In this document: in pieces, positions 12,828 through 22,989 of the stretch
Layout of the letters: every line of letters begins with the position of its first letter
How positions within the stretch are numbered: the stretch's first letter is position 1
Assembly: GCA_002389665.1 (NCBI GenBank)
Contig: DGNO01000005.1
Span: 209,292 to 273,291 of the forward strand
Length of the DNA: 64,000 nt
From: Rhodobiaceae bacterium UBA4490
GTDB lineage: Bacteria > Pseudomonadota > Alphaproteobacteria > Parvibaculales > Parvibaculaceae
Direction: 5' to 3'
The notes under the pieces: model-generated
The model's database searches: none
Told to the model about the DNA's origin: nothing
The model's input: only the letters and a program-made list of their open reading frames with translations
Made by a program: the position numbers and the translations under genes

Positions 12828-14383
12828 GCCTTGGTTCCTTCTTGTGCGGGCATAGGATCGTGAGACGGGGTGAGATAAAGCAGACTGCGATGCGCCCAGC
12901 CGGGCCGTGTCTCGGGAAAATCGCTGCGGTAATGGCCGCCCCGGCTTTCCTCGCGGGCGAGCGCGGCGCGCGTCATGAGATGGGCGGCAATCGCCGGGTT
13001 CTCGAAGGCGCTGAGTGTGCGGGAGGGGCCCGCCGCCTCATCGCGCAAAACCTCGATCAGCTCCAGCGCTTGCCTAAGACCGCCCGCTTCGCGCACCACG
13101 CCAACCTTGGCGCTCATGTGCTGGCGCAGGCGCTGAAGGAGCGGCAGATGCGCGTTTTCGGGCGCTGCCATCTCCGCTTCGCGCGCGCGAAGGGCAGGGG
13201 AGGGAAGCTGCGCATTCATAATGTCTTCGGCAACGCGCGCGCCGAAGACCACCGCTTCCAAAAGCGAGTTGGAGGCAAGCCGGTTCGCCCCATGCGCGCC
13301 GGTGGAGGCCACTTCCCCGCAGGCCCAAAGCCCGGCAAGGGAGCTGCGCCCCTCTGCATCCGTGCGCACGCCGCCCATGTGATAATGCGCCGCCGGGGCA
13401 ACGGGAATGGGCTCACGCACCGGGTCGATGCCGAGCGCCTGGCAATGGGCATAGACGGTGGGAAAGGCCGAAGGAAATTTGTCGCCCACGGCCCCGCGCG
13501 CATCGAGAAAGATTTTTTCCCCGCGTGTGATGCGCGCGCCGATGGCCCTTGCCACCTGATCGCGCGGGGCAAGCTCGTCGGTAAAACGCTGCCCCGCCGC
13601 ATCGGTCAGCACCGCGCCTGCCCCGCGCAAGGCTTCGGTCACGAGCGGGGCGGGGTCTTTATCCGCGGCAATGGCGGTTGGGTGAAACTGCACGAATTCC
13701 GGATCGGCGATTTCCGCGCCGGCCCGTGCCGCCATGGCAAGGCCCTGGCCGCGCGCCTCTGCCGGGTTGGTGGTTACGGCATAAAGCGCGCCGGTGCCCC
13801 CGGTGGCAAGCACCGTGGCACGCGCAAAGAAAGAGACGCGTTTGCCGTTCACCAGCGCATGAACGCCGGAGATCCGCCCGCCCGCAGAGATGAGTTCATA
13901 GGCTTCGGCATGTTCGATGATGCGGATGGACGGGGCGGCGCGCACGGCGGCGATCAGCGCTTCCATAATCGCCTTGCCCGCCTTGTCGCCTTCCACATGG
14001 ACGATGCGCGCCTGGCTATGCGCGGCTTCAAGGCCGACGGCGAGCTTGCCTTCAAGGTCCCGGTCGAAGGGCACGCCGAGCTGCAAAAGATCGGCAATGC
14101 GCGCCGGGGCCTCGCGCGCCAGAAGCTGCGCGATGGCGGGATCGACGAGCCCGGCGCCCGCCGCCACCGTGTCGGCGGCATGGGCCTCTGCCGTGTCGCC
14201 TTCATGAATGGCAGCGGCAATCCCCCCTTGCGCCCAGGCGGAGGAGGCGCCATTGCCGATGGGCGCAGCCGCCAGCACCGTCACGCGCAGGGGCGCGAGC
14301 TTCAGCGCCGTGAAAAGCCCGGCAAGCCCGCCGCCCGCGATCAGCACATCGCCGGCATCGGAAATTTCAGGAAGTGCGGCCAC
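12824..14383 (-). CDS. nadB: L-aspartate oxidase
   Basis: A 519-residue flavoprotein that oxidises L-aspartate to iminoaspartate, which NadA then converts to quinolinate. The FAD-binding glycine motif is [13 protein letters not shown] at about residues 12-24. The succinate-dehydrogenase-like active-site regions are present as [17 protein letters not shown] and [17 protein letters not shown]. Length is normal for the family. It lies between nadA and nadC; a hairpin occupies the 63-bp gap to nadA. Confidence 0.97.
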
Positions 14384-14406
14384 GCGCGTGCCCCGCTTTT
14401 TCGCGT

Positions 14407-14439
14407 CTTTAAGAGCCTCCGCTTGAGAGGCCCTTAAAG
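14407..14439. promoter_or_regulatory. Intercistronic hairpin between nadA and nadB
   Basis: CTTTAAG (14,407-14,413) and CTTAAAG (14,433-14,439) are perfect complements; inside them GCCTC faces a GAG-A-GGC stretch with a single bulge. There is no long U-run after it on the minus strand, so it looks more like an mRNA processing or stability element than a strong terminator. Confidence 0.5.
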
Positions 14440-14446
14440 TGCGCCC

Positions 14447-15550
14447 TCAGACGGGCAGATTGATCATCCGCTCGACGGCGGCCCGCGCCCGCGCGGCCAA
14501 AGCCGGATCGACCGTCACTTCTTCATGCATATAAACCAGCGCATCGAGAATGTTCGGCAGCGTGATCCGCTTCATATGCGGGCACAGATTGCAGGGGCGC
14601 ACGAATTCCACCTCCGGCGTTTCCGCGGCCACATTGTCGCTCATCGAGCATTCGGTCACCATCACCACTTTCTTCGGCTTGTTGACCTTCACCCAATTGA
14701 TCATGGCGGAGGTGGAGCCGGAGAAATCGGCTTCTTTCACCACATCCGGCGGGCATTCCGGGTGCGCGATGATGACGATGGACGGATCGTCCTCGCGGTA
14801 GGCGCGCAGCTCTTCGGGCGTGAAGCGCTCATGCACTTCGCAGGAGCCGGCATATGTGTGGATCTTCACATTGGTCTGGGCGGCCACATTCATGGCGAGA
14901 TACTGGTCCGGGATCATGATGACCTCCGGCACGCCGAGGCTTTCGACCACCTGCACCGCGTTGGAGGAGGTGCAGCAAATGTCGCTTTCCGCTTTCACCT
15001 CCGCCGTCGTGTTGACGTAGGTGACGACGGGCACGCCCGGATATTTCGCTTTCAGCGCGCGCACATCCGCGCCCGTAATCCCTTCGGCAAGCGAGCAGCC
15101 CGCCCGGCTATCGGGAATGAGCACGGTCTTTTCCGGGCTCAGGATTTTCGAAGTCTCGGCCATAAAATGCACGCCGCACTGGACGATGACGTCCGCTTCC
15201 GCGCGCGCGGCTTCTTTGGCGAGATGCAGCGAGTCGCCCATAATGTCGCCGACACAGTGGAAGATTTCCGGCGTCATGTAGTTATGGGCGAGCAGCACGG
15301 CATTGCGCTCTTTTTTCAGCTCGTTGATCGCCTTCACATAAGGCGCATAGACCGGCCATTCGACGGCGGGGATGACGTGCTTCACCCGCTCGTAATAAGG
15401 CGCCATTTCCCTCGCCACTTCCGGCGTATATTCCAGATCGGGCATGGGAAGCGGCTTGAAACGGGGATTATGGGGCGGCGTCGCCTCTTTTCCTTTCAGC
15501 GCTCCCGCTGCCGGGGTTTCGCCGGACCGTTTATCCAGAACCAGGGCCAT
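14447..15550 (-). CDS. nadA: Quinolinate synthase
   Basis: A 367-residue [4Fe-4S] enzyme that condenses iminoaspartate with dihydroxyacetone phosphate to quinolinate. Cluster-ligand cysteines are visible in [22 protein letters not shown] and [11 protein letters not shown], and the substrate region [20 protein letters not shown] is typical. First gene of the nadABC operon. A strong AGGAGG ribosome site lies just before the ATG and abuts a perfect inverted repeat, so a bound repressor would sit directly over the leader. Confidence 0.97.
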
Positions 15551-15560
15551 CGCTGCCTCC

Positions 15561-15581
15561 TTATACTCACTTTGAGTATAA
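15561..15581. promoter_or_regulatory. Proximal nadABC operator candidate (NadQ/NrtR type)
   Basis: A perfect inverted repeat with arms TTATACTCA (15,561-15,569) and TGAGTATAA (15,573-15,581) around a three-base spacer. It lies directly upstream of the AGGAGG and start codon of nadA. A COG4111-like Nudix/winged-helix regulator is encoded at 21,919-22,989. Assignment of this site to that regulator is inference from the family's known control of nad genes. Confidence 0.7.
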
Positions 15582-15622
15582 ATAATCGCTCAAAAAATAC
15601 CGGTCGGGGCCGGCCGAGGGGC

Positions 15623-15643
15623 TTATGCTACGTTTGAGCATTA
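15623..15643. promoter_or_regulatory. Distal nadABC operator candidate, degenerate copy
   Basis: Arms TTATGCT and AGCATTA form an imperfect inverted repeat. Aligned with the proximal site it shares the outer TTAT, the CT, the central TTTGAG and the later AT. The two centres are 62 bp apart, close to six helical turns, so both would face the same side of the DNA. It covers the -10 box and part of the spacer of the candidate nadA promoter. Confidence 0.55.
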
Positions 15644-15653
15644 GCCGCGTCAA
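15625..15653 (-). promoter_or_regulatory. Candidate sigma70-type promoter of nadABC
   Basis: On the minus strand TTGACG (15,653-15,648) and TAGCAT (15,630-15,625) are separated by exactly 17 bp. Transcription would begin near 15,618, giving a leader of about 68 bases. The distal inverted repeat overlaps the -10 box and the proximal one lies within the leader. Confidence 0.55.
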
Positions 15654-15691
15654 GCGAGATATGATGTTTTAATGACGGGGATCAAGGGGGG

Positions 15692-18007
15692 CTAATGAAC
15701 TTCCTTCGCATTCGCTTCGGTCAAGAGAATCGTCTCTTTAAGTGCGTGCTTCAATAGATCGCTCGGTCCTCGCGATTTGTCACCCAGGATTTCGATTCTA
15801 TACCGGGCTCGAGTGATTGCGACATAAAGTCTGTTGTGAGCCGCGTATGACAAAAAGTTTCGCGTGGTTCCGTCTCCGGTTACGGCAGGAATACGTCCCT
15901 TATCTACGCCAATCATAACCACACCAAAAAACTCCAAACCGCCAACGAAGTCAGCGTGGCCGATAACGAAATGACCGGATGCTTCCGCAGATTCTACCGC
16001 CTCTACATCGCCGCGTTTCTTTAACAATGTTACGGGTTTGTTTTTCTCGTTACCGTATTTCTGAAGGGCGTCCATGAGCTTTCTGTCGAAAGCGACAATA
16101 AGTATGTTGCCTTTCTTGCACTCTAGTTCCCTTTGCATTCTTTCTGCGTGTTTGAATGCAGCTTCGATGATCGACTCATCATTTGGCAGTTCAAAATACG
16201 TTGGCGGCGCGGATTTTCTTTCTTCTGCTTCGGTAAAACCAGAAGATGACGAAATAAGTGGATTCTCGAAATTCACGAAGAGCATTGCTCCCGATGCTAC
16301 AATTGAGTGAGCTAAGTCCACAATATAAGGAGATGAGCGAAAAACGGTCTGTAATTTCTGGGGCTCAAGAGGCGGTAGATCCGAGATAACGGCTTCTGAT
16401 AACTCATTGGATGTCCAGCCACGGTCACCCACAGATTGGGATCTGTCCATTGAATAGGTAATGGGATAGGAGGTCTCGGAGCGGGTAAAAAAGTGAAATA
16501 TGTGGAGCTCATTAATATTAAACAAATGAGTCTCATCAATGAAAATTGCGTCATACCCATGCCTGACCCGGCGACGGCGCCAAATGGGTGTATCTAGTTG
16601 TGCGATTGCGGTAAGAACCACGTCATCCGTGTCGAATTGTGCAGCTTGCCCAAGCTTTTCCTGGTACCTCAAGAATATTGAGTAAATAAATCCTTTGTCA
16701 GCTTCCCATTTGGTTGGGATGCCATAAAGGAGAGGTGGGCATTTTTTGTATGCATCAAGATTATCTCCCGCCCTGCCTTTTATAAGGACGCTAAACTCAT
16801 GTTGCAGCATTTCAGAAACTGCCCAATCATCTGTATTTCTAAGGAAAGTTCGAAGGTCCTCAGAAACAAACCGTTCGTGCGATGAATAATCGTCTTTCAT
16901 AGCTTCTTGGAAGGCTTCATTGATATACAAGAGCTGCGTGTCCTTCGATTCCAATGCATCTCTATCTATAAACTCTGCTTCACTGATTTGGTGTGCCAAT
17001 TGTTCCGCGCAGAGTTCGCTTAGCGTGCACACTTTGAGGGAAACTCGTTCGAGCGTGCGATCTCTTTTGCAGTATTCATTGGGATCGATTACTGAGAGGT
17101 ACTCTAAAATGGAGCGCTTTGTCGCTTCGCTATGGGTAACAAAAACAGCGTGATGCGGGCGTCCCTCCGCTTCCGCTTTTTGAAGCTCGGTGACCGATTT
17201 AAGCATCAAGCACAGAGTTTTCCCCGTACCTGCTCCACCTTCTATTCGCCCTGGACCTTTCAACCCGGAAGTCACAAAAGATCGCTGCTTTTCTGTGAGT
17301 TGATGAAGCCATTGATCGTAGCTTAGAAAGAGCGTCTGGCTGCTATTTTCAGGGCTCTCCATCATTGACACCTGTATGACGGCGTCAGTTGATAGATTTT
17401 CTTTGGTTGTTTCTTTTGTGAGGCGCTTTGATGTTTCGACAACCTCACCTAACCTGTCAAAGAATTTTCGAAAATTTGTGTAGTTCGGAATCTCGCTATT
17501 CGCATCGCCAGATTCATATCCGGCTTTATATACTAAGCTATATTTTCCTGACAAACCGCGTTTCAAAAGGCGTTCTTCGAGTGGTGCGCGATCAATGACA
17601 ACTCGATAAGGTGTTGGTCTGTATGGGAATGGAAATAGGATTGCCTTGTTGCTTTGAGGAATGACTCGTTCAGAGAAATTGAGACTCATTCCCTGCCAGA
17701 GTTTTTTACAGAACCGTAGCAGTTTCTGTAATAAAAAAATTGTCTCTTGTTCGGGGCGGGAATCAAAAATACCAGACTGCTCTACATCGATGACGAGAAA
17801 CCGTGATGTTTTGGTTGTATTAGTGCTGGCAAAGACTAAACCATTGTTGGTGCGAACAAGTCGGATAGGGTCAGGGAGTTGTGCGGTTCTTACGACTCCA
17901 GTCACCACAGCATGAAGCGTTTGAGCCAGTTCGTATTCTATCGTTTGAAAGAATCTGTTTGATACGATTTCGTCAATTGCGGTTTCGTCAAAGGCGATAA
18001 ATTGCAT
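15692..18007 (-). CDS. Superfamily 1 (UvrD/Rep-like) helicase with an unassigned N-terminal region, possible defence protein
   Basis: A 771-residue protein. The first 230 residues have no motif I recognise. The Q-motif is LTEKQRSFV (about 237-245), Walker A is GGAGTGKT (257-264), Walker B is IFIDE (488-492), and motif III is around SMDRSQSVGDRG (519-530). Motif IV contains FRSSP (556-560), motif V is GHADFVGGLEF (683-693), and motif VI is NRLYVAITRAR (725-735). All elements for ATP-driven DNA or RNA translocation are intact. No nuclease motif is evident. Its ATG shares one base with the stop of the upstream gene (TAATG), so the two are coupled. Base composition is far more AT-rich than flanking genes, pointing to transfer. 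It is not Gabija: no OLD/TOPRIM partner is present. Confidence 0.85.
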   Translation of the reverse strand: MQFIAFDETAIDEIVSNRFFQTIEYELAQTLHAVVTGVVRTAQLPDPIRLVRTNNGLVFASTNTTKTSRFLVIDVEQSGIFDSRPEQETIFLLQKLLRFCKKLWQGMSLNFSERVIPQSNKAILFPFPYRPTPYRVVIDRAPLEERLLKRGLSGKYSLVYKAGYESGDANSEIPNYTNFRKFFDRLGEVVETSKRLTKETTKENLSTDAVIQVSMMESPENSSQTLFLSYDQWLHQLTEKQRSFVTSGLKGPGRIEGGAGTGKTLCLMLKSVTELQKAEAEGRPHHAVFVTHSEATKRSILEYLSVIDPNEYCKRDRTLERVSLKVCTLSELCAEQLAHQISEAEFIDRDALESKDTQLLYINEAFQEAMKDDYSSHERFVSEDLRTFLRNTDDWAVSEMLQHEFSVLIKGRAGDNLDAYKKCPPLLYGIPTKWEADKGFIYSIFLRYQEKLGQAAQFDTDDVVLTAIAQLDTPIWRRRRVRHGYDAIFIDETHLFNINELHIFHFFTRSETSYPITYSMDRSQSVGDRGWTSNELSEAVISDLPPLEPQKLQTVFRSSPYIVDLAHSIVASGAMLFVNFENPLISSSSGFTEAEERKSAPPTYFELPNDESIIEAAFKHAERMQRELECKKGNILIVAFDRKLMDALQKYGNEKNKPVTLLKKRGDVEAVESAEASGHFVIGHADFVGGLEFFGVVMIGVDKGRIPAVTGDGTTRNFLSYAAHNRLYVAITRARYRIEILGDKSRGPSDLLKHALKETILLTEANAKEVH

Positions 18008-18837
18008 TATTCGACCCTTAAAGAGGTAAATCTAGCGGTAGCGTCCGCGATGTAACTCTCGGCAATGTCGTCTATTCCTATTCTTCCGAACAGGAAGGAA
18101 AAGCATTGCATAAGATGTTCAAGCTGCGGCGAAGGGATTTGACCAACTGGCATTGCGAATTCGGAGTGAGAAAAAGACACTTCCTTTTTCTCTTTACAAG
18201 GCCATTCTAAGTTGCTGACGCCTTTCGCAATGAGGCTGCTAGCTTCTTTTGAGATGTGTGCCACTTCGCGCAAGAGTACTACGTACCCGTTGTTGTCGCC
18301 ATTGTGTTCAATTTGTGGGAGAAAATAGAAATTTTGATTTTTGTTTTGCACTAAGTTTTTGATTGTTTGTGCAATGATCTTTTTTTCCTCGCTATCAACG
18401 AGCTCGTTCTTCGGTGTAGCTGGATCTTCAGAAGATATCAGGTGAAGGCCATCTGCTATTTGGCGTGCTCTTTCAGCGTTTTTTTTAGCGGCCTTGGAGG
18501 CGTCTTCAATTTCGAAAAATTGGCGCACTATCTCATTGGGCTCTACGGATAAGAGAACCGATGTTGCGATGTCGCATTGTTTTAGGATGGAAACAAAGCT
18601 ACCGCGCAGTTGGGCATATAATGTTTCCTGGACTAAATCAGCGCCGTCGACTTTCATCCAAGAATCTAGTTCCACTACGGGTAGATAGTTTAGTACAGGA
18701 AACTTCTCATTCGCGATGTCACATCTAGCTGTGATCGTTAATCCAAACACCGGGTATAGAGGGTATCTTTCAGCCTGAGCGCAGGAGAAAATTGTTCCCT
18801 GCGTAAGCGCCCCCATACTTATCCGAGCGACTCTCAC
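18007..18837 (-). CDS. Unknown partner protein of the SF1 helicase
   Basis: A 276-residue protein (288 if an upstream GTG at 18,873 is used). The start at GTG 18,837 is chosen because a GAGGGG ribosome site lies a few bases before it; an internal ATG at 18,816 is also possible. The N-terminal part contains MGALTQGTIF and the segment LTITARCDIANEK (about residues 35-47), followed by LPVVELDSW. A Thr/Ser-x-x-Cys-Asp-Ile pattern of this kind occurs, as I remember it, in small proteins of unknown function encoded beside mobile or defence genes. The middle (about residues 115-145) is charged and probably helical. No catalytic motif is recognised. AT-rich like the helicase, and first of the two-gene unit. 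Confidence 0.75.
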   Translation of the reverse strand: MRVARISMGALTQGTIFSCAQAERYPLYPVFGLTITARCDIANEKFPVLNYLPVVELDSWMKVDGADLVQETLYAQLRGSFVSILKQCDIATSVLLSVEPNEIVRQFFEIEDASKAAKKNAERARQIADGLHLISSEDPATPKNELVDSEEKKIIAQTIKNLVQNKNQNFYFLPQIEHNGDNNGYVVLLREVAHISKEASSLIAKGVSNLEWPCKEKKEVSFSHSEFAMPVGQIPSPQLEHLMQCFSFLFGRIGIDDIAESYIADATARFTSLRVE

Positions 18838-19008: not shown

Positions 19009-19061
19009 GGCACTTATTTTGGGTATAGGTACTTATTTCTTTGAGTGCCCGCTCCTATACC
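19009..19061. repeat. Nested inverted and direct repeats at the right edge of the AT-rich module
   Basis: GGTATAGG (19,022-19,029) is the complement of CCTATACC (19,054-19,061), and GGCACT (19,009-19,014) of AGTGCC (19,044-19,049). The direct repeats GGCACTTATTT and GGTACTTATTT lie between. The block spans the 3' end of the DUF2339 gene, exactly where base composition changes. It may be a terminator for that gene or a scar of integration. Confidence 0.4.
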
Positions 19062-21766
19062 TCCCCTTCATCCCCCGCACTCTCCGGCCCTGCCTTAAAC
19101 ACCACGCGCTGATAGAAGAGGCCGAGGCCGATCAGGGCGAGGCCGAGGCCGATGAAGGAGAGGGCGCGCAGCGCGCCGCCGAGATTGGACATATCGAAGA
19201 GGAAGACCTTCACCACCACAAGGCCGATAAGGCCGAGCGAGGCAAGGCGCAGCGCCTGTGTCCTGAGGCGCATCCCGGCGGCAAGGAGCCCCGCCCCGAA
19301 AAGGAGCCAGGCGAGCGAGTAGGTGTAATTCTCGGTCTCCCCCGCCGGCCCCCGCAGCACCGCGCCGTGGAACGCCTGGCGGATTTCGAGCGAGTAATAC
19401 GCAAAGAGCATGAGAAGCGCATAAGCCCCGAGGAACCGCAGTTCCAGCTGCCGCATCTGTCCTTCCGGCTGTTTCGCCGCTTCGTAAGCGCCATAAAGCG
19501 CAAGCAGCGCGGGCAGAAGGTAAGCGGCAAGCAGCGTGTCGAGCGGGAACTGCCCGGCAAGCGCCTCCCCCGTCAAAAGCGGGTTATGGCCGATAAGCGC
19601 CACCATCAGGCTTTGCGCCAGGGTGAGATAGCGCAGGCCCTTCAGCCCTTTGGAAAGAAGGCCGAGCCTGCCGCCGCTCTGCAGCTTTGCGAGTACGAGG
19701 CTCATGGCCAGCCAGCTTGTGGTCAGCAGCCCGTGCTGGAGAAGATCGAAGGGCCGGGAAAAGAGCACGCCGTCTGAGAGATAATGATTGATCTCCAGCG
19801 AGACGAGAACGACGGCGAGGAGCGCCGCGCCCGCCTCGAAAAATTCCTTCTCCCGCTCCGCGCCCGCTTTCGCGAATAGCCGCGCCGCGCCCCAGAAGGC
19901 GAGCACCGGCACGCCGTAAAGATAGGCGAGGAGATTGAGAACCGGCGCGGTGCCGATGTCATAGGAAAGCAGCTCCGGGTTGAGCGTGAGGCGCACCGTC
20001 ACCGCCGCCCCGAGCGTGAGCGCCAGCGGCCCTAAAAACGGAACGGGCAGTTTCAGGCGCACGAAGCTTGTGCCGAGCGCGAGCAGCGCCAGCGCAATGG
20101 TGAGCCAGCCTTCCTCGAAGATGATGGCAACGGCCAGGGTAAGCGCGGCGAGTGTGGCCGTCGCAAAGGCGGCGGCGGGAATTTGGTTGGCGGGGTTTTC
20201 GGGTGCGGAGGAAAGCTGGCCTGCCAGCCGCCGCGTGCCTTCCGCGTAAATCAGCCCGAGGCCGATGGCCAGCGCCCCCCAGGAAAGGTCCGGGGTGAGC
20301 CCCGTCATCCGCCAGAAGAGAAGGAAGAAGGCGGTGATGGGCACGGCGGCGGCAAGTCCCGCCCAAAGGCGCGCGCGCCGCCCCGCCAGAATTTGCAGAT
20401 AGCCGAACCCGCCATAAAGCGCCATGAGCGCGGTGCCCGCCACGATCAGGCCGACCGTTTCTTCCGGCAGGAGCGGGCGGGCCAGCGCCGCGCCGAAATC
20501 ATCCGCTGCGCCCGCAAGCCGCCAGCTTGCCAGCACCGCCAGCGCGGGCAGGGCGGCGGCCGCGGCAAGCAGCGCCGCGCTTTGCTTTCTGTAAATGAGC
20601 GCGAAAGTCATCGCCACATAAAGGCTGAACGCCGTGAGCGAGGCCGCCCCGTGCCCGTCCGCCCAGACCGTCAGGAGAAGGAGAAGCCCCGTCAGCGCGC
20701 CTGAGGGGAGAAGCAGGCTCAGCGCATTTTTCGTTTCCTCTTCCTGTGTCCCGCGCCCGGCCCAGTAAGCGGCAGTGCCATGGAGGAGAAGAAGATGCGC
20801 GCCGATGATGATGGCATCGCCCTTCCCGTAAGATGTGGCGAGCCAGATCAGCGGCCAGAGCGCGCTTGCCAGAAGTGTGAGGTGAGAAAGCCAGCGCCAG
20901 CCCCTCAGCTCCGCCGTGCTCAGCGCCGTGGCGAGCACGAAGGTGAGATAGAGGAAAAGGAGTTCGGGGGCGGGGTCCTCCGAGCCGATCAGCGCCGGGG
21001 TGAGCACCGCGCCCAGAAGGCCGATCAGCCCGAGATAACTCACATGCACCGCCGAGAGCAGAAGCGCGGCCACCGAGAGCGCGGCAAGTGCCAGGAAGGC
21101 GGCGGGCGGCGGCAGGAAGCCGTAAAGCGCATAGGCGGCATAGACCGTTCCATATCCCGCGATGAGCCCCGCCGCCGTCAGGATCGGGGGGATGGCGACG
21201 GCTTTTTCCGAGGGCAGGCGCGTGAGGGAGGGCACGCGGCGGCTGGCTTCCCCTGCGGCCAGAAGCGCGGCGGCGAAAAGCGCCCCGAAGAAGACCCGCG
21301 CGCCGGGGCCGAAATAGCCCTGCTCGACGGAGTAGCGCACGAGGAAGATGCCCCCCAGCGCGAGCGCCAGCCCGCCGACCCAGACCGCCCAGCGCGTGCC
21401 GAGCGCCTGTTCGATGCCGCCGCCGGATTTTCTTTTGCGCGGCGCTTCTGCGGCCTGCGCCCGTCGCCCGCCGCGCGGCACGCCCCAGCCGGGGGCGGCA
21501 GGCTGCTGCGGGATTTCTTTTTCGGGTTCCGGCTCAGGCTCGGGTTCGGGCTCCGGCTCCGGTACGGCTTCAGGCGCAGTTTCAGTTTCAGGGGTAGGGG
21601 CGGGCGCCGTTCCTTGCAGCGCGGCGCGCAGGGCGGTGATTTCCGCAAAGGCTTCTTCCGCCCGCCTATGGGCCGCTGCCGCCCGTTTATCGGCGCTGCG
21701 GGCCATAACGATGGCGACGATGACGGGGCCGAACAGCACCGTCAAAACCAAGAGCACGTATTCCAT
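19055..21766 (-). CDS. DUF2339 multi-pass membrane protein
   Basis: A 903-residue inner-membrane protein of the DUF2339 family. Residues 1-22 form a hydrophobic segment (MEYVLLVLTVLFGPVIVAIV), then a helical KRAAAAHRRAEEAFAE stretch. An acidic Pro-Glu repeat follows at about residues 70-84, with a basic linker before the conserved region GTRWAVWVGGLALALGG. The rest is well over twenty predicted membrane helices. Function is unknown. The start at 21,766 is chosen because AGAGGGG lies just upstream; a frame start at 21,850 lacks one. It stands alone between the AT-rich module and the NadQ-like regulator. Confidence 0.85.
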   Translation of the reverse strand: MEYVLLVLTVLFGPVIVAIVMARSADKRAAAAHRRAEEAFAEITALRAALQGTAPAPTPETETAPEAVPEPEPEPEPEPEPEKEIPQQPAAPGWGVPRGGRRAQAAEAPRKRKSGGGIEQALGTRWAVWVGGLALALGGIFLVRYSVEQGYFGPGARVFFGALFAAALLAAGEASRRVPSLTRLPSEKAVAIPPILTAAGLIAGYGTVYAAYALYGFLPPPAAFLALAALSVAALLLSAVHVSYLGLIGLLGAVLTPALIGSEDPAPELLFLYLTFVLATALSTAELRGWRWLSHLTLLASALWPLIWLATSYGKGDAIIIGAHLLLLHGTAAYWAGRGTQEEETKNALSLLLPSGALTGLLLLLTVWADGHGAASLTAFSLYVAMTFALIYRKQSAALLAAAAALPALAVLASWRLAGAADDFGAALARPLLPEETVGLIVAGTALMALYGGFGYLQILAGRRARLWAGLAAAVPITAFFLLFWRMTGLTPDLSWGALAIGLGLIYAEGTRRLAGQLSSAPENPANQIPAAAFATATLAALTLAVAIIFEEGWLTIALALLALGTSFVRLKLPVPFLGPLALTLGAAVTVRLTLNPELLSYDIGTAPVLNLLAYLYGVPVLAFWGAARLFAKAGAEREKEFFEAGAALLAVVLVSLEINHYLSDGVLFSRPFDLLQHGLLTTSWLAMSLVLAKLQSGGRLGLLSKGLKGLRYLTLAQSLMVALIGHNPLLTGEALAGQFPLDTLLAAYLLPALLALYGAYEAAKQPEGQMRQLELRFLGAYALLMLFAYYSLEIRQAFHGAVLRGPAGETENYTYSLAWLLFGAGLLAAGMRLRTQALRLASLGLIGLVVVKVFLFDMSNLGGALRALSFIGLGLALIGLGLFYQRVVFKAGPESAGDEGEV

Positions 21767-21918
21767 CAGATCCCCTCTGCGCTTCTCCCGCGCGCATCTG
21801 CTTTCCGCCCGTTCAGCCTGAAAGCTCCATGACACTAATGGCAGAAGCATAACCCGGCCAGCAAAAGCGGGGATAAACCGGACGGCCTAGAGGGGAGGCA
21901 CGAGAGGATTGGGCGCGA

Positions 21919-22989
21919 TTACACCCTATTGTTCACCCGGCTGCGGGAGGGGGCGAGTTTGAGGCCGGGCGCCGGGCGCTCGTTCAGGATTTCGCGGCGG
22001 AAGCGGAACTGTTCCGCCGGCCGCCCGCCGGTGCGCGTGGTGATGCGCCCGGTGCGCTCCACCAGGCCGGCTTTTTCCACCAGGCGGCGGAAGTTCTGTT
22101 TATGCACATGCAGGCCGAGCAGCGCTTCGGTCATTTGCTGCAGCTCGAACAGCGTGAAGGTTTCCGGCATCAGCTCGAAAATCACCGGGCGGTATTTCAG
22201 TTTCGCGCGCACCCGTCCCATGGCGGTGGCGAGAATGCGCCGGTGGTCGAACTGCATCGCCCGGCCAAGCTGCGGGGTCAGGCTGTCGGGTTTGCGCGCC
22301 TGGGGGCGCCCGTCTCTATAGGCTTCGATGACGAGGCCGGAGCTGTAAAGCAGTTCGTAGCGCTCCAGCACTTTTTCCTCGTCCCACGCCACCCCGTCGA
22401 TGCCGAAGCAGAGCCGCAGCCTATCAAGCCGCCGCCCGCGCTCGATTTCCTCTGCGCTCGATCCGCCCGTTTGCGCCGCCCATTCGCGCAGGAGCGGCAC
22501 CAGCACCTTGTCGATAATGGCCGGCTTGCCCTCGCGCCAATCCTCCCAGGGGAAATACTGATACCAGGGCGACCATTTCGCGCCCGACATATCCGCGTTC
22601 TGCCCGCGGGTGAGCGCCAGATAGCCGACCGAGACGACGTGATCGGCGCTCGGGTCTTCTTCGGCCGCATGCCGGCCCCGGTCGCCGAAAGTGTAAAGCT
22701 GTTCGACATAGCCGAGCCGGAGCCGCGTCTGTTCTTCCACCCAGGCGCGCAGGCCCTGTTCGAGCGTGCGGTGGGAGAGGGGATCGAACGGGCCAAAAGG
22801 CAGCGTGTCGCCGGGCGCGGCCTCGCTCCCGTCCTCGCCCGCTTCTTTGTCATGCGGCACGGTGAGGATTTGCGGCGCGTTCTCCACCACCGAGACAATG
22901 GCCGCGTTCAGCCCGATGGTGATGCGTTTCAGCGGCCCCGCGCTTTCGCCTATCGCGGCTTGTTGCTGCTGCGCCTTTTTGCGGTTCAT
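21919..22989 (-). CDS. nadQ: NadQ/NrtR-type transcriptional regulator (Nudix-like domain plus winged helix, COG4111-like)
   Basis: A 356-residue protein. Residues about 20-175 form a Nudix-like domain whose catalytic box is degenerate: the region around LEQGLRAWVEEQTRLRLGY lacks the canonical REx2EE arrangement, so it should bind rather than hydrolyse its ligand. Residues about 265-340 form a winged helix (ETFTLFELQQMTEALLG, HKQNFRRLVEKAGLVERTG). Regulators of this family sense NAD-related nucleotides and repress NAD synthesis genes. The nadABC operon with two inverted repeats lies about 6.3 kb away. Its ATG overlaps the stop of the phosphatase gene by four bases. The family name is from memory. 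Confidence 0.75.
   Translation of the reverse strand: MNRKKAQQQQAAIGESAGPLKRITIGLNAAIVSVVENAPQILTVPHDKEAGEDGSEAAPGDTLPFGPFDPLSHRTLEQGLRAWVEEQTRLRLGYVEQLYTFGDRGRHAAEEDPSADHVVSVGYLALTRGQNADMSGAKWSPWYQYFPWEDWREGKPAIIDKVLVPLLREWAAQTGGSSAEEIERGRRLDRLRLCFGIDGVAWDEEKVLERYELLYSSGLVIEAYRDGRPQARKPDSLTPQLGRAMQFDHRRILATAMGRVRAKLKYRPVIFELMPETFTLFELQQMTEALLGLHVHKQNFRRLVEKAGLVERTGRITTRTGGRPAEQFRFRREILNERPAPGLKLAPSRSRVNNRV

What the first reader, a model, noticed from the sequence alone, without database searches (positions are those of the whole stretch)
15692..18837. AT-rich two-gene module: SF1 helicase plus unknown partner, candidate defence system
Two minus-strand genes are fused by a one-base stop/start overlap and differ sharply in base composition from everything around them. 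The helicase keeps all SF1 motifs (GGAGTGKT, IFIDE, and NRLYVAITRAR in motif VI). Its partner is an unrecognised protein of about 276 residues. The module is inserted between nadA and a DUF2339 gene, splitting housekeeping genes. Coupled helicase and unknown-protein pairs of foreign composition are a frequent form of anti-phage or anti-plasmid system, but no known system matches from memory.
Basis: partly seen in the sequence, partly recalled or inferred. Interest (0 to 1): 0.72.

Follow-up and report, generated by a model that had tools for sequence, protein, structure and literature searches.

The report
Mobile helicase and MazF-fold gene pair
Two tightly linked genes, a DNA helicase and a protein folded like small bacterial toxins, form a mobile pair shared by very different bacteria, plasmids and phages; it is probably an undescribed defence system against phages or plasmids, but that has not been tested.

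Summary
Window 15692-18837 carries an AT-rich (45% G+C against 62%) two-gene unit, stop and start sharing one base, between nadA and a DUF2339 gene. In 7 of 8 family relatives with both neighbours on one contig these lie only 212-279 bp apart. In the only other same-genus genome held, homology ends at base 15689 and an Apea-type HEPN gene, a known defence family, follows.

Of 41 genome loci found with the helicase, 38 have the partner directly upstream; three are contig edges. The pair spans several phyla, sits on conjugative plasmids, and in a Klebsiella P2-like phage lies beside the portal gene, a published defence hotspot. The two proteins co-diverge (r 0.92, 45 loci).

The partner matches no Pfam, NCBIfam or PADLOC family; its model resembles MazF/CcdB/Kid with a ~105-residue helical insertion. 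A sequence-profile test for MazF kinship failed, and MazF's catalytic Arg/Thr appear absent. Tests against Helicase+DUF2290 and Gabija fail on the partner.

Best reading: an undescribed two-gene anti-phage/anti-plasmid system in which the helicase senses foreign DNA and switches on the MazF/CcdB-fold effector. Defence is inferred from context; the mechanism is inference.

The parts
15692..18007 (-). SF1 UvrD/Rep/PcrA-like helicase, 771 aa, with a ~200-aa N-terminal domain of unknown fold
17408..18007 (-). N-terminal domain of the helicase (aa 1-200), conserved in the family, no solved relative by sequence
   Evidence: alignment A9 of 20 members, invariant D74, Q94, P126; no PDB sequence match at E<=10; fold not tested on its own
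17216..17239 (-). Walker A, GGAGTGKT (aa 257-264)
16517..16537 (-). Walker B region, DETHLFN (aa 491-497), invariant in the 21 aligned helicases
15803..15835 (-). motif VI, NRLYVAITRAR (aa 725-735)
18007..18816 (-). partner gene, 269 aa from ATG 18816 (alternative starts GTG 18837 or GTG 18873); MazF/CcdB/Kid-like predicted fold
   Evidence: model pLDDT 86, pTM 0.85; fold matches
18718..18723 (-). Cys-Asp (C33, D34 in the 270-aa numbering of A1) of the conserved motif QG..F..G..IT..CD....K
   Evidence: C33 and D34 in 49 of 50 partners, the other having a gap; in 23 of 23 of a broader set that includes the second branch
18346..18666 (-). helical insertion between the third and fourth strands of the MazF-like barrel (about residues 52-158)
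   Evidence: secondary structure of the model; first match spans model residues 4-246 with 105 aligned
18076..18132 (-). C-terminal motif SPxxExxxQ...RIG; S230, P231, Q238 and G248 are universal, E234 and R246 only in the main branch
   Evidence: 50 partners; 23 partners: E234 in 22, R246 in 21
18005..18009 (-). TAATG stop/start overlap joining the two genes
15689..15690 (.). breakpoint: congener G001 is 95% identical from 14000 to 15689, then carries an Apea-HEPN ORF
14447..15550 (-). nadA, resident flank
   Evidence: found in 38 of 40 family genomes, the window's own included
19055..21850 (-). DUF2339 membrane protein, resident flank on the other side
   Evidence: PF10101 E 1.9e-106; found in 10 of 40 family genomes, the window's own included

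Best explanation
A horizontally moving two-gene anti-phage or anti-plasmid system. Shown here: a tightly linked, closely spaced pair (partner first, SF1 helicase second) carried as AT-rich cargo by chromosomes, plasmids and a phage, at a chromosomal site that in a congener holds another defence gene. Inferred: the two proteins form a complex; the helicase, with its own N-terminal domain, senses invader DNA or replication intermediates; ATP-driven translocation then switches on the partner, whose MazF/CcdB-like domain with its helical insertion is the effector, acting on RNA, gyrase or DNA, and stops phage or plasmid replication or the host. I put about 0.75 on 'defence or conflict system' and about 0.35 on the specific 'helicase sensor, MazF/CcdB-fold effector' mechanism; the figure below is for the whole in outline, and overlaps with two of the rivals, which are also defence systems.
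Confidence: 0.6

Rival explanations
1. A toxin-antitoxin style addiction pair: the MazF/CcdB-fold partner is a free toxin and the helicase (or its N-terminal domain) is the antitoxin, kept for plasmid stability.
For: Fold match to TA toxins; residence on plasmids; close spacing.
Against: Plasmids with an intact partner but a broken helicase exist: on Rhizobium pRSpC104a only helicase profile positions 1-305 were found, in two frames, beside an IS21 element, and an E. coli plasmid has the helicase split in two annotated genes (a sequencing error is possible). A 771-aa helicase with invariant ATPase motifs is an unusual antitoxin. The piece left in the Rhizobium copy could still neutralise.
Confidence: 0.15
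2. The helicase itself is the effector (it unwinds or strips invader DNA or transcription complexes, like HelD on RNA polymerase) and the partner is an adaptor or specificity subunit, not a toxin. This too would be a defence system.
Confidence: 0.2
3. A DNA-repair or mobile-element maintenance pair of plasmids and prophages, with no defence role.
For: UvrD-like helicases are repair enzymes; three plasmid copies lie near umuC- or imuA-like translesion genes.
Against: Chromosomal copy at a site that holds Apea-HEPN in the congener; nearest neighbours richer in defence models than outer genes; position beside the portal gene in a P2-like phage.
Confidence: 0.07
4. A distant subtype of a described helicase system (Gabija, Helicase+DUF2290, AbiO, Nhi) or a system already described outside the libraries held here.
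For: Weak PADLOC hits of the helicase to GajB, AbiO and Nhi; my libraries stop at PADLOC 2023 and open-access text, and supplements were not seen.
Against: The partner does not match DUF2290 (hhalign probability 0.2) nor any GajA model; gene order is reversed relative to the DUF2290 loci fetched. The listings of paper searches and the empty search 107 showed no such system.
Confidence: 0.15

Closest known systems
Gabija (GajA + GajB)
   Same: Two-gene system with a UvrD-like SF1A helicase; GajB models are the helicase's best PADLOC hits (2.7e-11).
   Different: [quoted passage not shown] here the first gene is a ~270-aa protein with a predicted MazF-like fold, and Walker B reads DETH instead of the DEXQD box described for GajB.
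Helicase + DUF2290 (Rousset et al. 2022, PMC9122126, passages)
   Same: Two genes, a UvrD-type helicase plus a smaller partner; found in P4-like satellites and prophage hotspots, inhibits T7.
   Different: DUF2290 lies downstream of a helicase-like ORF in 6 of the 7 DUF2290 loci fetched (helicase recognised by reading) and is unrelated to our partner by profile; the helicases align only around Walker B (probability 25), though the DUF2290 helicases were cut at their start by the fetched stretch, so this was a partial comparison.
MazF / PemK / Kid / CcdB toxin fold
   Different: A helical insertion of about 105 residues, no significant sequence kinship to PemK, no matching catalytic Arg/Thr by reading, and a 771-aa helicase in place of a small antitoxin.
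AbiO and Nhi (PADLOC helicase models)
   Same: Weak helicase-core hits (6.4e-9, 3.9e-8), with a similar ~160-residue offset before the helicase core in the AbiO model.
   Different: As I recall, both are single-gene systems; here the pair is linked wherever it could be checked.

Membership tests
SF1 UvrD/Rep/PcrA-like helicase | UvrD N-terminal domain and helicase motifs | tested here: met
   PF00580 E 3.2e-12, above cut-off; invariant Walker B and near-invariant Walker A and motif VI in 21 relatives
Gabija | UvrD-like GajB helicase | tested here: inconclusive
   GajB model hit at 2.7e-11, 40.8 bits, over part of the model only
Gabija | OLD-family TOPRIM nuclease GajA as partner | tested here: not met
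   no GajA, OLD or TOPRIM match for the partner or among the matches listed for 34 family members
Helicase+DUF2290 | DUF2290 (PF10053) partner | tested here: not met
   no Pfam match; hhalign against 5 DUF2290 proteins probability 0.2
Helicase+DUF2290 | helicase gene followed by DUF2290 | tested here: not met
   6 of 7 DUF2290 loci have a helicase-like ORF upstream; here the partner precedes the helicase in all 49 fetched loci that hold both and were measured
MazF/PemK/CcdB superfamily | MazF-like SH3-type barrel | tested here: met
   [not shown]
MazF/PemK/CcdB superfamily | sequence-profile kinship to PemK | tested here: not met
   hhalign score 6.3, within the shuffle range
MazF/PemK/CcdB superfamily | catalytic Arg/Thr of MazF ribonucleases (recalled) | tested here: inconclusive
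   no conserved Arg or Thr at matching places by reading; no superposed coordinates available
MazEF-type toxin-antitoxin | small antitoxin gene beside the toxin | tested here: not met
   the constant neighbour is the 771-aa helicase; ORFs under 90 aa were not examined as neighbours in other loci
anti-phage defence system | protection against phage when introduced into a sensitive host | not testable with these tools
   no experiment
anti-phage defence system | variable, mobile location beside other defence genes | tested here: met

The most novel reading that the evidence does not exclude
A widespread, undescribed class of bacterial immunity in which an SF1 translocase with its own N-terminal domain licenses a MazF/CcdB-fold effector that has gained a helical insertion and a new conserved site (QG, T..CD....K and SP......Q). 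The toxin-antitoxin fold would have been rewired from antitoxin control to helicase control, with at least two old branches (QGTIF..TARCD and QGDIF..TADCD), each seen paired with a helicase.
Probability: 0.35. Interest if true: 0.75.

Novelty: new variant of a known kind. Interest (0 to 1): 0.56.

Why it matters
It gives a compact, testable two-gene system found on E. coli plasmids (113 of 5426 complete genomes), in a P2-like phage and in contigs of several bacterial phyla, yet without a match in the curated family libraries I searched for the partner and in the paper searches I ran. If it works as proposed, it shows a toxin-antitoxin fold placed under the control of a DNA translocase, linking toxin-antitoxin biology with helicase-sensor immunity. 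It also marks the region upstream of nadA in this bacterial family as a cargo site for defence genes.

Tried and rejected
Gabija: rejected on the partner. Helicase+DUF2290: my first lead from memory; rejected by profile comparison and gene order (5 of the 6 loci with a helicase-like ORF upstream were aligned, one near-duplicate left out). MazF kinship by sequence profile: tested and not significant, so I claim predicted fold only. Pfam and PADLOC scans of 34 partner family members gave 6 and 5 families, each for one member only (best UPF0492, E 4.2e-4), which I take as chance. Sequence search of PDB with the partner gave only weak hits (E 0.79 and 0.13), and with the helicase N-terminal domain none. 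P0251 looked like a partner-helicase fusion but seems a remnant joining the partner's start to a helicase's end. Flanking repeats that would mark a transposon or integrase: none convincing; one weak promoter-like match at 18899-18872, where 0.5 are expected by chance. Literature: the listings of searches showed no description of this pair, and search 107 for five of its protein accessions found no paper; only open-access text is held. Five papers were seen as passages only (PMC9519451, PMC13092281, PMC9122126, PMC10781630, PMC10952713); the rest as listings. Supplementary tables were not seen, so a system listed only there would be missed.
Full report
What is there. Window 15692-18837 contains two minus-strand genes sharing one base (TAATG). 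The downstream gene (15692-18007) encodes a 771-aa SF1 helicase; the upstream gene (18007 to 18816, 18837 or 18873 depending on the start) encodes a 269-288 aa protein. The helicase carries PF00580 (E 3.2e-12) and weak GajB, AbiO and Nhi matches. The partner matches nothing in Pfam, NCBIfam or PADLOC at E<=1; when 34 family members were each scanned against Pfam and PADLOC, 6 and 5 families appeared, each for a single member (best E 4.2e-4). G+C of 15692-18816 is 45.2% against 62.1% for the rest of the window, and no 3125-bp stretch outside it falls below 58.4% (2183 overlapping stretches).

It is inserted cargo. nadA is present in 38 of 40 genomes searched in the bacterial family (the window's own included) and the DUF2339 gene in 10 of 40. 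Of the 9 relatives with DUF2339, 8 have nadA on the same contig. In 7 of these the two matches lie 212-279 bp apart (5 of the 7 stretches were also fetched and aligned; G015 and G031 rest on coordinates). In G004 the gap is 1426 bp and holds a 332-aa ORF, 46.7% G+C, with a sub-threshold match to an SDH-type serine protease. In the window the gap is 3507 bp. The only other held genome of the genus, G001, has no partner match. It is 95% identical to the window from 14000 (where I began the comparison) to 15689, that is, to just before the end of the helicase ORF. It then carries an ORF matching HEPN_Apea (PF18739, E 6.1e-36) and the PADLOC models Cas13-ApeA (2.3e-49) and PDC-S58 (2.9e-36), in DNA of 44.6% G+C against 62.3% for the rest of the stretch. 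Its contig ends there, so its DUF2339 side is unknown. The region upstream of nadA is therefore a cargo site that in two congeners holds two different genes or gene pairs, one of a known defence family. No flanking repeats explain the exchange.

The pair is linked and old. A scan of one genome per species with the helicase alignment gave 41 loci. A profile of the partner finds it directly upstream on the same strand in 38; in the remaining three the helicase match starts within 135 bases of the end of the stretch held. Of six viral-contig loci, four have the partner and two begin at the helicase. Seven annotated records chosen for the partner (of 88 plasmid and 2 phage records, the 2 being one phage) all have the helicase next, truncated in one. 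Organism names belong, by my knowledge of their classification, to Alpha-, Beta- and Gammaproteobacteria, Myxococcota, Bacteroidota, Clostridiales, Verrucomicrobiota and Deferribacterota; several are metagenome bins, whose contigs can be misassigned. The gap between the genes is -14 to +13 bp, median -1, in 49 loci; 46 of 48 loci have a module G+C below their flanks (median difference -13.5 points). Protein distances correlate strongly (r 0.92, none of 2000 permutations above 0.20; 45 loci after dropping one duplicate, one truncated copy, one contig-edge copy and the most distant pair). The most distant pair, L062, belongs to a second branch (QGDIF..TADCDL) also seen in a Sinorhizobium meliloti protein, so the association with a helicase probably predates both branches.

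It rides on mobile elements and keeps defence company. 113 of 5426 complete E. coli genomes carry DNA of the pair, all on plasmids, 109 with at least 80% of it; 82 of the 88 plasmid records with the partner are typed conjugative. In Klebsiella phage ST16-OXA48phi5.4 it lies beside the portal gene. Rousset et al. (PMC9122126; passages) describe the region between gpA and portal gpQ of P2-like phages as a hotspot of anti-phage systems; that the far flank here corresponds to the gpA side is my reading of the annotation. Of 136 ORFs nearest the pair in 37 loci, 91 PADLOC models are hit at E<=1e-10; the 25 shown include GajA, DarT/DarG, LmuA/LmuC, DruE, DrmA/DrmD, BrxH and mad3. Of 132 ORFs at the outer ends of 36 of these loci, 13 models are hit. 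These are model counts, not protein counts, and related models hit the same protein; genes were called by a simple longest-ORF rule, and the control genes may lie in the same islands. The contrast is suggestive, not a formal test. The pair is uncommon: partner in 2 of 398 and helicase in 3 of 398 genomes drawn from the phylum, the window's own included and one helicase match weak and partial.

Natural breaks. In two E. coli plasmids the partner is annotated as two pieces or interrupted by IS1 while the helicase stays whole, and in another the helicase is in two pieces while the partner stays whole. I looked at four E. coli copies of 113 this way (in the fourth only part of the helicase remains beside IS1), chosen because their annotation or coverage looked odd, and some single-base breaks could be sequencing errors. 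The pattern argues against a partner that kills whenever the helicase is lost, and suits a system that needs both parts.

How it most likely works. Shown: linkage, close spacing, co-divergence, mobility, defence neighbourhood and predicted fold class. Inferred: complex formation; the helicase as sensor and ATP-driven switch, by analogy with GajB, which is reported to bind DNA termini and hydrolyse nucleotides to promote GajA (PMC10952713, passage); the MazF/CcdB-fold partner as effector. The target (RNA, gyrase or DNA) is open, and the missing MazF residues make a standard MazF ribonuclease unlikely. The chief rivals are a helicase effector with an adaptor partner, and a toxin-antitoxin pair.

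Relation to known systems. It looks like Gabija and Helicase+DUF2290 in plan (UvrD-type helicase plus partner, mobile) but is a member of neither: the defining partners were tested and not met, and gene order is opposite to the DUF2290 loci fetched. The DUF2290 helicases I compared were cut at their start, so that helicase comparison is partial. I saw no description of the pair in the listings of nine paper searches (the one was empty) or the passages of five papers, which does not exclude subscription papers, supplements or newer databases. I rate it a new variant of a known kind.

Noticed in passing
window 15562-15580: Perfect palindrome TATACTCActtTGAGTATA upstream of nadA, the only match with up to 3 mismatches in the window (chance mean 0.02); a candidate operator for the regulator encoded nearby.
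   Followed up: partly
window 21919-22989: Minus-strand gene with an NrtR-type winged-helix domain (PF21906, E 1.4e-19) close to the NAD synthesis genes; may regulate them through the palindrome.
   Followed up: partly
L079 1816-2310 (minus strand): Congener G001 carries a cut-off Apea-HEPN ORF at the same breakpoint; the rest of it lies beyond the contig end.
   Followed up: partly
L082 2853-3851 (minus strand): G004 carries a 332-aa AT-richer ORF between nadA and DUF2339 with a sub-threshold match to an SDH-type ClpP-like serine protease (E 1.1e-4); another cargo type at this site.
   Followed up: no
L062 9030-12145: Second, distant branch of the same pair (QGDIF..TADCDL partner, helicase 22% identical over its best segment), also seen as P0246, P0248, P0250-P0252, one of them from Sinorhizobium meliloti.
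   Followed up: partly
protein P0251: Metagenome protein joining roughly the partner's first 245 residues to the last 125 or so of a helicase; looks like an internal-deletion remnant, not a working fusion.
   Followed up: partly
L003, L008 (E. coli ColV plasmids): The pair lies 2-3 kb downstream of three efflux genes (etsABC by my recall); a search for the two proteins' accessions found no paper.
   Followed up: no
L041 18886-21021: A second, distant SF1 helicase (profile E 2e-11) lies about 6.5 kb downstream of the pair in Methylomicrobium; possibly the helicase of a neighbouring defence system.
   Followed up: no
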